Shown piece by piece: positions 388 to 24,647 of a stretch of DNA of 26,116 nt. The DNA is taken from the IMG/VR virus record IMGVR_UViG_3300020057_000141, positions 1 to 26,116 of that record; one strand, given 5' to 3'. Below the pieces are notes generated by a model. That model made no database searches, was not told the origin of the DNA, and worked only from the letters and a program-made list of their open reading frames with translations. The number at the start of each line of letters is the position of its first letter. Position 1 is the first letter of the stretch. Source of the stretch: a virus. The position numbers and the translations under genes are program-made.

Positions 388-1173
388 ATGAAAGCAATTC
401 TGGCGTCGTTGGAAGAAGTCGCAGAGCCGTTCCGAACCGAGTACGAAGCGAAGAATGAGAAGTTCTATCTCAAGCTGGAGGGCGGATTCGTTCCGTCCGA
501 TGAGTTGGCGAAGTTCCGCGATAAAAACATCGTGCAGTCCAAGAAACTCGATACGCTGGAAGCAACGCTCGAAGGGATCGACGCCAAGTACACGTTGCTC
601 CTGGATGAGAACAAGACCCTGAAACACAAGCTGGAAGGCGGCGTGACGGACGCGGCAAAGAAGAATCACGAACTGATCGAAGCCGCGCTCAGGCCCGTCC
701 TGGCAAAGGTGGGTGACCTCGAAGCCAGCCTCGCGAAATCCGAGAAGGAAGGTTCCGACCGGGCGGTTGCTTTGATCCGAAAGGATCTTGAGAATCGTCT
801 CGTCACCGTCGCGCAGAAGATCGGTGTGGACCCGAATGCGCTTGACGACTTCAAGCGGCGCGGTCTCGACGTGTTTCAGGTAGAGGATGGGACCATCGTC
901 GCGAAGGCCGGTGAGATGAGTCTGTTTTCGAAGCAGAACCCATCGCAGGCCCTCGGCGTTGACGAGTGGGCCGGCGGTATTCAGGCGACGGCTCCGCATC
1001 TGTTCAAGCCTTCGGTTGGCGGCGGGGCGAGCGGGTCGCAGTCGAATGTTTCTGGGATCACGGGGAAGCCGAACGCGACCGTGTTGCGCGATCCGACTCC
1101 GCAAGATCTCGGCCGTTTTGCGTCTGGGATAAGCGATGGCTCGATTGTGGTTGTGCATACTCCGGGTCAGTAG
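388..1173 (+). CDS. phage scaffolding-like protein
   Basis: 261 residues. The middle (about residues 45-160) is charged, heptad-rich and probably coiled coil; the tail is Gly/Ser-rich and loosely structured. This composition and the position directly before the major capsid gene are what is expected of a capsid scaffolding protein that organises coat subunits during procapsid assembly and then leaves. No sequence motif proves it. Start is ATG 388, with AAGGAG/AAGGA-like sequence in the 20 bases before it. A promoter and a 343-base structured leader separate it from the capsid gene, so the two may be regulated separately. Alternative: a minor head protein. Confidence 0.65.
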   Translation: MKAILASLEEVAEPFRTEYEAKNEKFYLKLEGGFVPSDELAKFRDKNIVQSKKLDTLEATLEGIDAKYTLLLDENKTLKHKLEGGVTDAAKKNHELIEAALRPVLAKVGDLEASLAKSEKEGSDRAVALIRKDLENRLVTVAQKIGVDPNALDDFKRRGLDVFQVEDGTIVAKAGEMSLFSKQNPSQALGVDEWAGGIQATAPHLFKPSVGGGASGSQSNVSGITGKPNATVLRDPTPQDLGRFASGISDGSIVVVHTPGQ

Positions 1174-1199: not shown

Positions 1200-1226
1200 T
1201 TGACATCTGTGGCGATCTGATATAGT
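1200..1226 (+). promoter_or_regulatory. sigma70-like promoter for capsid gene leader
   Basis: A perfect TTGACA (1200-1205) is followed after 15 bases by TATAGT (1221-1226), preceded by TG one base before it (extended -10). The spacer is short, but the extended -10 can compensate. Transcription would start near 1233, giving a leader of roughly 280 bases that contains all the repeats and triloop hairpins before the capsid start at 1517. Confidence 0.55.
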
Positions 1227-1255
1227 TCTCGCGACGAAGCGTATGAAGGTGCGAT

Positions 1256-1305
1256 CTAAGACCTTCGCGCTGCCATCTTCCTAAGACCTTCGCGCTGCCA
1301 TCTTC
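1256..1305 (+). repeat. two perfect tandem copies of a 25-bp unit
   Basis: Units at 1256-1280 and 1281-1305 are identical and begin CTAAGACCTTCGCGC. Each contains ACCTTC, which can pair with GAAGGT in the 14-bp repeats at 1240-1253 and 1343-1356. The end of the second copy forms the left arm of the first triloop hairpin. Confidence 0.9.
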
Positions 1306-1313
1306 CGGTGGAA

Positions 1314-1392
1314 GAAACAGCGTATCCCGGTGGGATAGAACACGTATGAAGGTGCGTGGAAGTGAAACAGCGTATCCCGGTGGGATAGAACA
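1314..1392 (+). repeat. 29-bp direct repeat, each copy holding a triloop hairpin
   Basis: Copies at 1314-1342 and 1364-1392 are identical over 29 bases (50-base period). Each contains TATCCC-GGT-GGGATA (1323-1337 and 1373-1387), a perfect 6-bp stem. A separate 14-bp repeat CGTATGAAGGTGCG occurs at 1240-1253 and between the two copies at 1343-1356. Confidence 0.9.
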
Positions 1393-1516
1393 ACAAGGAG
1401 GGGCGGTAACAACGTCCTTACGGCATCGCGCGGTGCGCGGTTACCACGGCTCCGGTGGAGTCGCTTGAAAAACATGCTCAATTCCGAGCAAACACACGTT
1501 TTTTAGGAGACACACC

Positions 1517-2650
1517 ATGGCAGGCGCATTGGTTAGCTCGAACGTTCTTTCTACAATTGTGGCGATGGGCATGAAAGCCCTGCGTGAGCGGGTCGTGCTC
1601 GCAAAGATCGTCAATCGCGACTATGAGCGAGAGATCACTGGGCAGTCGCAGTTCTCAACTGTCAACGTCATGATCCCCGCACCCGTCGCATCCCGCAGCG
1701 TCTCGCCGGATGTCGTGCCGCCCGCTGTCACTGCGGTCACGCCGACCAACATCCCGATCACCCTCACGGAGTGGAAGGAAGCTCCATTCGTGATGGACGA
1801 CAAGGGTCTGGTGCAGGTGAGCCGGAACATCGTCCCTGGGCAGGTGACCGAGGCGATCAAGTCGATTGCGAATGAAATCGACACGTTCCTTTACGGCCTC
1901 ACGGGTGGTATATATGGGTACGCCGGGGTCGCTGGCACCACGCCCTTCGCGACCGACCTGTCGGAGTATCTCGACGCGAACCAGCAGGGGGACGCGCAGT
2001 TGATGCCCGCCGATCCGGAGAACCGCTTCGTGATTTTGAACACGTTCGCGAAGGCGAATGCACTCGGGACCAACGCGGTGCAGAACGCCTCCTGGCGAGG
2101 CGATTCCAACGCGTTCCGTAAGGGCGTCATGGGAGAGATCCTCGGTGCTCAGTGGGACTACTCGCAGAACGTTCCTCTCCACACGAACACGGGAGCCGGA
2201 ACGGTTCTCGTGAACAACGCTGCGTTCGCGGCTGGCGCTGTGACGGTCGCGTGGGACGGTGGCGGAACCGAACCGGGCAACGGAGACATCTTCACGGTCG
2301 CCGGGGACACGCAGACCTACGTGGTCAAAGCGCACACCACTGTTTTGATCACGTTTGCTCCCGCGGCGAAGGTTGCGTGGGCCGATAACGCTGCGATTAC
2401 GTTCAAGGCAACGCATCGAAAGAACCTCCTGATCCATCGTGACGCGATCAGCTTCGCGATGGCTCCTCTCGTCGACCGTGTTCGTATTGAGGGAGTGCCC
2501 GTTGCTCAGGCCGTTTCCATCGACGAAGAGTCGGGGCTGTCGCTTCGGCTGGAAGTCACCCGTCAGCACCGGCAGTACCAGTGGGCCTTTGACGCTCTGT
2601 ACGGCGGGGCGCTCACGCGTCCCGAGTACGGCGTGCGCATCGCCGGATAA
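1517..2650 (+). CDS. major capsid protein, P22 coat family
   Basis: 377 residues. The N-terminal half carries the pattern I recall from P22-type coat proteins: VMIPAPVASRSV, then TEWKEAPFVMDDKGLVQV, a segment with IDTFLYGLTGGIYGYAGVAG, then ASWRGDSNAFRKGVMGEILG. Residues about 235-300 include GDIFTVAGDTQTYVVKA, a beta-rich segment common in this family. The C-terminus (HRDAISFAMAPL, SGLSLRLEVTRQHRQYQWAFDALYGG) closes the HK97-like fold. It forms the capsid shell. Start is ATG 1517 with AGGAGA about 9 bases upstream. It has its own promoter-like sequence and a long structured leader, and a 6-bp intercistronic hairpin directly follows the stop. Confidence 0.9.
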   Translation: MAGALVSSNVLSTIVAMGMKALRERVVLAKIVNRDYEREITGQSQFSTVNVMIPAPVASRSVSPDVVPPAVTAVTPTNIPITLTEWKEAPFVMDDKGLVQVSRNIVPGQVTEAIKSIANEIDTFLYGLTGGIYGYAGVAGTTPFATDLSEYLDANQQGDAQLMPADPENRFVILNTFAKANALGTNAVQNASWRGDSNAFRKGVMGEILGAQWDYSQNVPLHTNTGAGTVLVNNAAFAAGAVTVAWDGGGTEPGNGDIFTVAGDTQTYVVKAHTTVLITFAPAAKVAWADNAAITFKATHRKNLLIHRDAISFAMAPLVDRVRIEGVPVAQAVSIDEESGLSLRLEVTRQHRQYQWAFDALYGGALTRPEYGVRIAG

Positions 2651-7606: not shown

Positions 7607-7682
7607 CGCGCTGTAGAGCAGTGGTCAGCTCGTCTGGTTCATACCCAGAAGGTCGCAGGTCCGAATCCTGCCAGCGCTACCA
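7607..7682 (+). tRNA. tRNA with CAT anticodon, initiator-like (fMet-type)
   Basis: A complete 76-base cloverleaf. The acceptor arm has six pairs plus a C1/T72 mismatch; D stem GAGC/GCTC; anticodon stem TCTGG/CCAGA with loop TTCATAC (anticodon CAT at 7640-7642); T stem GCAGG/CCTGC with loop TCCGAAT; discriminator A and an encoded CCA end. Initiator features are the unpaired C at position 1 and the A11-T24 pair in the D stem, plus overall similarity to bacterial fMet tRNA (AGCTCGTC, TCATA, GAAGGTCG segments). Only two of the three anticodon-stem GC pairs typical of initiators are present. Elongator Met or Ile2 remain possible. Confidence 0.85.
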
Positions 7683-23428: not shown

Positions 23429-23949
23429 ATCGACAGGAACTTATTGGGAATGTGGGACAGTCTCCCACTATCAAATACCTTCAGTCGGGAGATCCGGTGG
23501 CAGAGTTTAGCCTTGCGACTACCGAGCGGTGGAAGAACAAGGCGGGCGATAAGCAGGAACGGACAACCTGGCACAAGATCGTCGCCTTCGGTCCGGTGTG
23601 CAAGGTGATCGAGAAGTACGTCTCGAAGGGTCAGGAGGTCTTCGTCGCCGGAGAAACCCGTCACGAGAAGTGGAAGGACAAGGAAGGCAACGACCGTACC
23701 ACGACGAAGGTGTACCTGAAGGATCTGAAGCTACTTCGTGGTGGTGGCAAGAGTGACGAGGACGGCGGGAATAACGAGGACGAGCAGCCGGACAGAGGCG
23801 ACGCGGGTAAACGAGCCCGGGAAGCTGACAGCAAGCGGGCCCGATCCGATGCTGACGATGGTCCCGGCGACTTCCAGGCCACGGATGATGACATCCCCTT
23901 CAGCCTGATCGCGGCGCTGTTGCTTCCGATGATGGGTCTGTTGGCGTGA
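23425..23949 (+). CDS. ssb: single-stranded DNA-binding protein with hydrophobic C-terminal extension
   Basis: 174 residues. The OB-fold (1 to about 108) starts MNRQELIGNVGQSPTIKYLQ, with TERWKNKAGDKQERTTWHKI and YVSKGQEVFVAGETRHEKW. An acidic linker follows, then DDDIPF at 154-159, the usual SSB tip that binds partner proteins and normally ends the protein. Here 15 hydrophobic residues follow (SLIAALLLPMMGLLA). The extension could bury the tip, bind membrane, or arise from stop loss. GTGA overlap with the next gene, which begins with a membrane segment. Confidence 0.9.
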   Translation: MNRQELIGNVGQSPTIKYLQSGDPVAEFSLATTERWKNKAGDKQERTTWHKIVAFGPVCKVIEKYVSKGQEVFVAGETRHEKWKDKEGNDRTTTKVYLKDLKLLRGGGKSDEDGGNNEDEQPDRGDAGKRAREADSKRARSDADDGPGDFQATDDDIPFSLIAALLLPMMGLLA

Positions 23950-24647
23950 AGTTTCGGCAAGGTCTTCTCATCCTGGCCTTGATCGGGATGTTGTCCTTTG
24001 CGTGGGTCGTTGGTACGATCCTCGCGGCGCAGCTTTTCCAGAGCGCCAGTCTTTCGCACCCCGCGACGTTGGCACTTCGCGGATCGCAGTCGATGAAGCC
24101 GCAATTCTCTCGTTCGGACTCGGGTGCAAATCCCGACGCCTCCACCATTCGCGGGGGCGTACTAGATTCGACGGGCAAGAGTGGAGCGGGGGAGACTGCC
24201 GAGCAGCACTCTCGTAAAACAGAGCGAACCAAAAAGCGACGAATATTCGCTTCCCGCGGCGGCCTAAGAGCTGCTGCCCAGGACGCTGGCTCTCCTGGTC
24301 ACCAAAACCAGTCGTTTCCGAGAATTTACGAAGTCACCGCCTACAGCCATTTTTGTACGCTGCCGGCTGACGGCATCGAAAGGGAACCACAGCCCACGGC
24401 GTCGGGGGTTTGGCCGGTGGCTGGTCGGACGGTGGCGGCAGATCCTTCTCTTCCATTTGGCCAGGAGTTGATCCTGATGGGGCGGGTTTGGCGCGTTGAG
24501 GACAGGGGCCGCGCAATCAGGGGGAAGCGTATAGACATCTTTCTTTCCTCATGCAAAAAGGCCCTGGAGTTTGGTCGTCAATTGCTTCCGGCATATGTGG
24601 TTCCGAGCATGTCCACGCTTTACGCGGACATGGAGGTGATGCCGTGA
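23946..24647 (+). CDS. membrane-anchored 3D-domain protein (cell-wall lytic)
   Basis: 233 residues from GTG 23946, overlapping the ssb stop. Residues about 6-30 (LLILALIGMLSFAWVVGTIL) are a membrane anchor or signal segment; then a long Ser/Gly/basic linker; then a 3D domain (about 127-219): TAYSHFC, TASG (151-154), DPSLPFG (166-172), EDRG (185-188), RIDIF (195-199). The three conserved aspartates D166, D186 and D197 are present. This double-psi barrel fold occurs in lytic transglycosylases, so it may cut peptidoglycan in lysis. It could also be a spanin-like or export-related factor. Confidence 0.75.
   Translation: MKFRQGLLILALIGMLSFAWVVGTILAAQLFQSASLSHPATLALRGSQSMKPQFSRSDSGANPDASTIRGGVLDSTGKSGAGETAEQHSRKTERTKKRRIFASRGGLRAAAQDAGSPGHQNQSFPRIYEVTAYSHFCTLPADGIEREPQPTASGVWPVAGRTVAADPSLPFGQELILMGRVWRVEDRGRAIRGKRIDIFLSSCKKALEFGRQLLPAYVVPSMSTLYADMEVMP

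What the first reader, a model, noticed from the sequence alone, without database searches (positions are those of the whole stretch)
1233..1516. Capsid-gene leader with five different-stem hairpins sharing one C-GGT-G triloop
Five small perfect hairpins (1301-1315, 1323-1337, 1373-1387, 1427-1439, 1450-1460) have four distinct stem sequences, but every one is closed by C-G over a GGT loop. Stems vary on both sides while pairing and loop are kept, like covariation inside one molecule. They sit between a promoter-like sequence (1200-1226) and the capsid ribosome site. The design suggests a multivalent binding site, perhaps for scaffold, coat or a small factor controlling capsid dosage, a processed small RNA, or a packaging-type DNA site.
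Basis: partly seen in the sequence, partly recalled or inferred. Interest (0 to 1): 0.78.

Follow-up and report, generated by a model that had tools for sequence, protein, structure and literature searches.

The report
Scaffold-read hairpin array before capsid gene
In many tailed bacterial viruses the messenger RNA for the capsid protein begins with a row of small hairpins that differ in their stems but share one loop, and the loop's first letter changes in step with one amino acid of the neighbouring scaffolding protein, which suggests that the scaffold protein reads these loops and thereby controls capsid production.

Summary
Five perfect C-GGT-G triloop hairpins with four different stems lie at 1301-1460, between the scaffold and capsid genes. 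No others lie on this strand of the 26 kb window, and 5000 shuffles of the leader never gave two.

It is a conserved element. Of 136 non-redundant capsid leaders, 48 carry at least two hairpins with the same loop on different stems, against 0.5% of control windows. Stems covary. The last hairpin sits a median 42 nt before the capsid start codon. Full phage genomes carry such clusters essentially only there. Rfam has no match.

Loop classes differ between phages: GGN, CGA, and rare GTC, AGA and CTGAA. The first loop base tracks one residue of the adjacent scaffolding protein, the one after its N-terminal FRxxN motif. I/V/T/N/L goes with G (57 of 57 phages) and R/K with C (13 of 13). A blind scan of 614 scaffold and capsid columns ranks this column first, and fresh phages agree.

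Best reading: a multivalent RNA operator read by the scaffolding protein's N-terminal helix, tuning capsid translation. Binding and the direction of control are inferred, not shown.

The parts
388..1173 (+). scaffolding protein gene (261 aa), the proposed reader of the hairpins
   Evidence: phrog_206 head scaffolding protein, E 4.8e-17; one gene upstream of the capsid in nearly all relatives
514..531 (+). codons of scaffold residues 43-48 F-R-D-K-N-I (FRxxN motif and the following residue that co-varies with the first loop base)
   Evidence: best of 614 scaffold and capsid alignment columns for predicting the first loop base, balanced accuracy 0.954; near the start of a predicted long helix 37-83
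1200..1226 (+). sigma-70-like promoter TTGACA-15 nt-TATAGT with extended -10 (TGATATAGT)
   Evidence: sequence and consensus scan; similar promoters before the hairpins in L040 and in MAR10/KF4/RZ01/SSP002, but not general
1301..1315 (+). hairpin 1, TCTTCC[GGT]GGAAGA
1323..1337 (+). hairpin 2, TATCCC[GGT]GGGATA
1373..1387 (+). hairpin 3, identical copy of hairpin 2 in a duplicated 29-nt unit (1314-1342 / 1364-1392)
1425..1441 (+). hairpin 4 (A), ATCGCGC[GGT]GCGCGGT including one G-U pair
   Evidence: helix A of the 19-sequence alignment, 82% of cells paired, 6 of 7 pairs with double changes
1447..1463 (+). hairpin 5 (B), CGGCTCC[GGT]GGAGTCG
   Evidence: helix B, 92.5% of cells paired, 5 of 7 pairs with double changes
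1464..1506 (+). stem C: CTTGAAAAAC ... GTTTTTTAG, abutting hairpin B; its 3' arm takes in the first two bases of the Shine-Dalgarno sequence
   Evidence: z -2.8 for this pairing in the window; z about -2 to -5 in most of its clade; not found in more distant relatives
1505..1509 (+). Shine-Dalgarno sequence AGGAG of the capsid gene
   Evidence: sequence
1517..2650 (+). major capsid protein gene (377 aa, P22-type coat)
   Evidence: phrog_283 major head protein, E 9.3e-61; relatives annotated as P22 coat protein

Best explanation
The leader of the capsid mRNA carries an array of RNA hairpins of the form C-(G or C)-G-N-G whose stems are interchangeable and whose loop is the recognised part. The phage's own scaffolding protein, encoded one gene upstream, reads the loops with the start of its long N-terminal helix (motif E-F-R-x-x-N-X). 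The residue X sets the first loop base: Ile/Val/Thr/Asn/Leu with G, Arg/Lys with C. Because scaffolding proteins are oligomeric and there are 2-5 sites, the last two usually about 22 nt apart, binding is probably multivalent. The array ends about 40 nt before the start codon, and in the window's clade it abuts a stem that includes part of the Shine-Dalgarno sequence. Binding therefore most likely changes capsid translation according to the amount of free scaffold, matching coat to scaffold. Shown by sequence: the array, covariation of stems, position, residue-base correlation. Inferred: physical binding, effect on translation, and its sign. I lean to scaffold-gated activation, since free scaffold signals a need for coat, but repression is nearly as likely.
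For: Array conserved before capsid genes: 48 of 136 leaders versus 13 of 2634 control windows. All loops equal in 43 of 64 multi-hairpin leaders versus 9.4 expected when loops are permuted, largest 20. Stem covariation: 63 double-change cells versus 22.4 +- 3.8 shuffled; covariation score 0.442 versus at most 0.168 for slid structures. Anchored to the capsid start, median 42 nt, while the intergenic gap varies from 65 to 876 nt. In whole genomes same-loop clusters occur essentially only at the capsid leader; covariance-model hits with E < 1e-5 in 778 kb are all capsid leaders. Scaffold type predicts presence of the element better than capsid type (87/105 versus 62/105). FRxxN present in 61 of 70 element phages, 12 of 56 others. 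Residue after FRxxN versus first loop base: 57/0 and 0/13, with hairpins called without any loop filter. Blind column scan: best of 614 columns, 0.954; best capsid column 0.833. Fresh phages: 2 of 2 Arg phages have only CGA; 15 of 18 others have GGN and none has CGA; 32 without the motif have no repeated loop. L007 against L001: hairpin B stem nearly unchanged, loop CGT against GGT, scaffold FRDSNR against FRDNNI.
Against: No binding or expression data. The FRxxN motif was noticed after seeing alignments of element-bearing scaffolds, and the residue-base link was noticed before the blind scan was run. Independent switches number only about 4 on the scaffold tree and 6 on the capsid tree. The fresh test holds only two Arg phages and one misfit (L511, Ile with a CGC hairpin). 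Scaffold versus other neighbouring genes as predictor of the element is only moderately better. Stem C is confined to one clade. The helix model has pLDDT only about 60-70 at the motif.
Confidence: 0.7

Rival explanations
1. The coat protein itself is the reader and represses its own translation, as the coat proteins of RNA phages do.
For: The element lies in the coat gene's own leader and essentially only there. Loop class also clusters on the capsid tree.
Against: Presence of the element follows scaffold type better than capsid type. No capsid column predicts the first loop base as well as the scaffold column, 0.833 versus 0.954. L007 keeps a window-like capsid but changed loop and scaffold residue together.
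Confidence: 0.1
2. The scaffold binds the hairpins, but not to control translation: for example to gather scaffold at the coat mRNA for assembly next to nascent coat chains, to protect or process the mRNA, or to bring an RNA nucleus into procapsids.
For: Same residue-base covariation. The element is absent wherever scaffold and capsid genes are closer than 40 nt (0 of 16), so such control is not needed by the whole family.
Against: Fixed distance to the start codon and contact with the Shine-Dalgarno stem in the window's clade fit initiation control better.
Confidence: 0.13
3. A host RNA-binding protein, or the ribosome's anti-Shine-Dalgarno sequence, recognises the loops.
For: GGU-G, GGA-G and GGG-G resemble Shine-Dalgarno cores (sequence; inference); hosts differ between phages.
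Against: GTC, CTGAA and AGA classes do not fit the anti-SD; a host reader gives no reason for strict correlation with a scaffold residue.
Confidence: 0.04
4. Generic mRNA-stabilising or terminator-like hairpins, or duplicated repeats, with no specific reader.
For: Leader repeats in the window show local duplication; a terminator occurs near the leader in Mardecavirus.
Against: Stems diverge with compensatory changes while loops are kept; no run of T follows; loops co-vary with a protein residue.
Confidence: 0.02
5. A DNA site, for example for packaging, acting as extruded hairpins.
For: Perfect inverted repeats in the head-gene region.
Against: Stems share no sequence, so no half-site for a DNA-binding dimer; orientation follows the capsid gene and distance is fixed to the start codon.
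Confidence: 0.01

Closest known systems
Coat-protein translational operators of ssRNA phages (MS2, Qbeta, PP7)
   Same: A virion-assembly protein of the phage reads a small mRNA hairpin near a ribosome site; loop and closing pair matter more than the outer stem (own knowledge).
Post-transcriptional autoregulation of the P22 scaffolding protein
   Same: P22-type coat and scaffold; scaffold level feeds back on head-gene expression after transcription (own knowledge; no paper found in the held library).
   Different: In P22 the scaffold limits its own synthesis and no RNA element is known to me; here the element lies before the coat gene and a loop code is visible.
Lambdoid N protein and boxB hairpins
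   Same: An alpha-helical protein segment reads a small hairpin loop, and peptide and loop differ between phages in matched sets (own knowledge).
   Different: boxB acts in transcription antitermination with arginine-rich peptides; here the motif is EFRxxN in a scaffold and the site lies at a ribosome site.
TwoAYGGAY and other orphan structured RNAs of Rfam
   Same: Tandem hairpins sharing a terminal loop (own knowledge).
   Different: No Rfam 15 match for the window leader at E up to 10, nor for ten relatives beyond one chance hit.

Membership tests
ssRNA-phage coat operator | bound by the coat protein | tested here: inconclusive
   No binding test possible; correlation favours the scaffold over the coat
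ssRNA-phage coat operator | single hairpin overlapping the replicase start in an RNA genome | tested here: not met
   2-5 hairpins before the capsid gene of dsDNA phages
P22 scaffold autoregulation | P22-type coat with upstream scaffold gene | tested here: met
   phrog_283 and phrog_206; gene order in relatives
P22 scaffold autoregulation | free scaffold represses its own synthesis after transcription | not testable with these tools
   needs expression experiments
N/boxB | arginine-rich peptide | tested here: not met
   motif is EFRDNN(I/V/R), not arginine-rich
N/boxB | protein residue and loop vary in matched sets between phages | tested here: met
   57/0 and 0/13
any Rfam family | covariance-model match | tested here: not met
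   no match in the leader at E up to 10; relatives only a chance hit
CsrA/RsmA sites | GGA in the loop | tested here: not met
   window loops are GGT; GGA is a minority loop
intrinsic terminator | GC-rich hairpin followed by a run of T | tested here: not met
   no T run follows the five hairpins

The most novel reading that the evidence does not exclude
Scaffolding proteins of a large group of tailed phages are sequence-specific RNA-binding proteins with a readable residue-to-base code (FRxxN-X: Ile/Val/Thr to G, Arg/Lys to C, perhaps Gly to A, and Tyr for Asn with a changed middle base). They use exchangeable hairpin arrays in the coat mRNA to match coat synthesis to free scaffold.
Probability: 0.55. 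Interest if true: 0.92.

Novelty: new variant of a known kind. Interest (0 to 1): 0.85.

Why it matters
How tailed phages keep scaffold and coat in proportion is an old question: P22 scaffold feedback has long been known without a known RNA site (own knowledge). This finding names a candidate site, a candidate reader and a single-residue, single-base code, so that it can be tested at once in cultured phages such as the Mardecavirus group, including RZ01 on Vibrio natriegens Vmax. It would add an RNA-binding function to scaffolding proteins, a new RNA family, and a natural set of matched hairpin-protein pairs.

Tried and rejected
Rfam searches of the leader and of ten relatives gave nothing. 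Literature searches for capsid leaders, structured phage RNAs and scaffold control in tailed phages found no precedent in the held library. A first test of capsid and scaffold columns against CGA versus GGN was unreliable, because some upstream ORFs had been picked wrongly; it was redone with profile-extracted scaffolds. A first motif table matched an upstream LRxxY stretch and was corrected. Neighbour tests with genes further up- and downstream showed that scaffold is the best predictor of the element, but only moderately so. Anti-Shine-Dalgarno pairing, CsrA, terminator and DNA-site readings were considered and dropped (loop classes, no T run, unrelated stems). Scaffold homologues in Caulobacter and Brevundimonas giant phages and Xp15, whose major head proteins are shorter and were not hit by the capsid search, do not carry the tandem triloop array. 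The solved-structure search gave no relative of the scaffold, only chance coiled-coil matches.

Full report
WHAT IS THERE. The window is a 26,116-base virus record. The region reads: scaffold gene (388-1173, phrog_206), a 343-nt gap, capsid gene (1517-2650, phrog_283, P22-type coat). They are the only such hairpins on the + strand of the window. In 5000 dinucleotide shuffles of the leader this loop never occurred more than once, and no loop more than twice. The leader folds better than shuffles (z -3.1). Hairpins 2 and 3 are copies within a duplicated 29-nt unit, and a 25-nt tandem repeat and a 14-nt repeat lie nearby, so four stems are independent. A promoter-like TTGACA-15-TATAGT with extended -10 precedes the array.

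CONSERVATION. Capsid relatives were collected from viral contigs and phage records. Their capsid leaders also carry short perfect hairpins with unrelated stems and a shared loop. On 136 non-redundant leaders (-260 to -1), 48 have at least two hairpins with the same loop and closing pair on different stems; of 2634 control windows from the same loci 13 do (0.5%). Among 64 leaders with at least two hairpins of the named loop classes, all loops are equal in 43, against 9.4 expected on permuting loops among phages, largest 20 in 5000. That permutation ignores relatedness. On a 19-sequence alignment the hairpins show strong covariation: 83.5% of cells paired, 63 double-change cells against 22.4 shuffled, score 0.442 against at most 0.168 when slid. 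A clean example is MAR10 versus KF4: taacggc[GGG]gtcgtta versus tagcggc[GGG]gtcgcta.

SPECIFICITY AND POSITION. In 18 records, including the complete 78.7-kb MAR10 genome, same-loop clusters lie essentially only at the capsid leader. A covariance model run over 778 kb gave seven hits below E 1e-5, all capsid leaders. A scan of viral contigs for one exact hairpin returned 90 stretches, of which 80 were examined. In 13 the hairpin lies 56-69 nt before a capsid gene, and each of these has a further C-GG-N-G hairpin about 21-23 nt upstream; the remaining loci, away from any capsid gene, have no such partner. The last hairpin ends a median 42 nt before the start codon (quartiles 36-55), and the spacer between the last two hairpins is typically 4-10 nt, while the gene gap varies from 65 to 876 nt. 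The array is therefore anchored to the capsid start, not to the scaffold stop. In the window's clade the last hairpin abuts a further stem (C) whose 3' arm runs into the Shine-Dalgarno sequence (z about -2 to -5 for most members; window -2.8); more distant relatives lack it. Sigma-70-like promoters are present in only 12 of 71 leaders.

WHICH PROTEIN. Loop classes are GGN (commonest), CGA, and rare GTC, AGA, CTGAA, with GGGAT and CGAA loops in a few. Presence of the element follows scaffold similarity better than capsid similarity: nearest neighbour right in 87 of 105 versus 62 of 105. Against other neighbouring genes the advantage is modest. Element-bearing scaffolds share an N-terminal motif, E-F-R-x-x-N: 61 of 70 element phages, 12 of 56 others. 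Several of those 12 carry a single GGN hairpin. The residue after the motif matches the first loop base. Hairpins were called without loop filter: Ile, Val, Thr, Asn or Leu go with GGN, Arg or Lys with CGN. Counted by phage: 57 with G and none with C, versus none with G and 13 with C (10 without the tetraloop phages). This needs about 4 switches on the scaffold tree and 6 on the capsid tree. The nearest pair is telling: L007 and L001 are both close to the window; the last hairpin reads CGGCTCC[CGT]GGAGCTG in L007 and CAGCTCC[GGT]GGAGCTG in L001 (CGGCTCC[GGT]GGAGTCG in the window), and the scaffolds read FRDSNR and FRDNNI (FRDKNI in the window). Rare classes fit the same logic: L105 AGA with FRKTNG, L088 GTC with FRDNYT.

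CHECKS ON THE CORRELATION. Because the motif was noticed by eye, I scanned all 249 scaffold and 365 capsid columns with close relatives excluded. The residue after FRxxN is the best of all (balanced accuracy 0.954); neighbours on the same helix follow; the best capsid column reaches 0.833. I then fetched relatives not seen before. Of 56 fresh phages, 20 have the motif: both Arg phages have only CGA hairpins (4 of 4); of 18 others 15 have GGN, none CGA, and one (L511) has a CGC hairpin instead; 32 without the motif have no repeated loop. A predicted structure of the window scaffold puts residues 43-48 (FRDKNI) near the start of a long helix (37-83) just after a small N-terminal alpha/beta unit; confidence there is moderate (pLDDT about 60-70).

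MECHANISM. Shown by sequence: the array, its conservation, its place, the kept loops on changing stems, the residue-base match. Inferred: that the scaffold's N-terminal helix binds the loops; that several scaffold subunits bind one leader; that this changes capsid translation. The sign is open. A feedback argument favours activation (free scaffold calls for coat; coat then consumes scaffold), while the abutting stem C in the window's clade would also allow repression.

NOVELTY. No Rfam family matches, and no paper in the held library describes such an element; subscription journals are mostly not covered, so a prior description cannot be excluded. In kind it resembles translational operators of RNA phages and matched N/boxB pairs, but it is a member of neither. 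Cultured carriers exist: the Mardecavirus group (MAR10, KF4, SSP002, RZ01) with two GGG hairpins, and a promoter and a terminator upstream.

Noticed in passing
window 24085-24267 (+): Strong match to permuted tmRNA (RF04321, 85.5 bits) inside the region covered by ORF 23946-24647; the tag reading ends in Ala-Ala-Ala-stop. A phage-borne permuted tmRNA would be notable; the true start of the overlapping ORF is probably downstream.
   Followed up: partly
window 7607-7682 (+): tRNA-Met (CAT) between tail genes, before the tape-measure gene.
   Followed up: no
window 1233-1392: Several short repeats in the leader (25-nt tandem, 29-nt and 14-nt direct repeats) suggest recent growth of the array by local duplication.
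   Followed up: partly
L023 upstream of 438: Four hairpins with different stems share a CTGAA pentaloop before the capsid gene; other relatives have GGGAT pentaloops (L211, L233) or CGAA tetraloops (L220, L225, L229).
   Followed up: partly
L397 2169-2432, L399 2172-2532, L401 2187-2483: Giant Caulobacter and Brevundimonas phages with a related scaffold but another capsid have their own conserved-looking structured capsid leader (GAGACG[GGGTC]CGTCTC, GAGGCG[GGGGC]CGCCTC about 56 nt before the start).
   Followed up: no
L396 2189-2359 (-): Annotated ORF RZ01_035 on the minus strand overlaps the capsid leader of phage RZ01 and is probably not a gene.
   Followed up: no
G009 (record of L013) 47663-48037 (-): Second, partial capsid match near the end of a 48-kb contig; the record may carry an end repeat or two related phages.
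   Followed up: no
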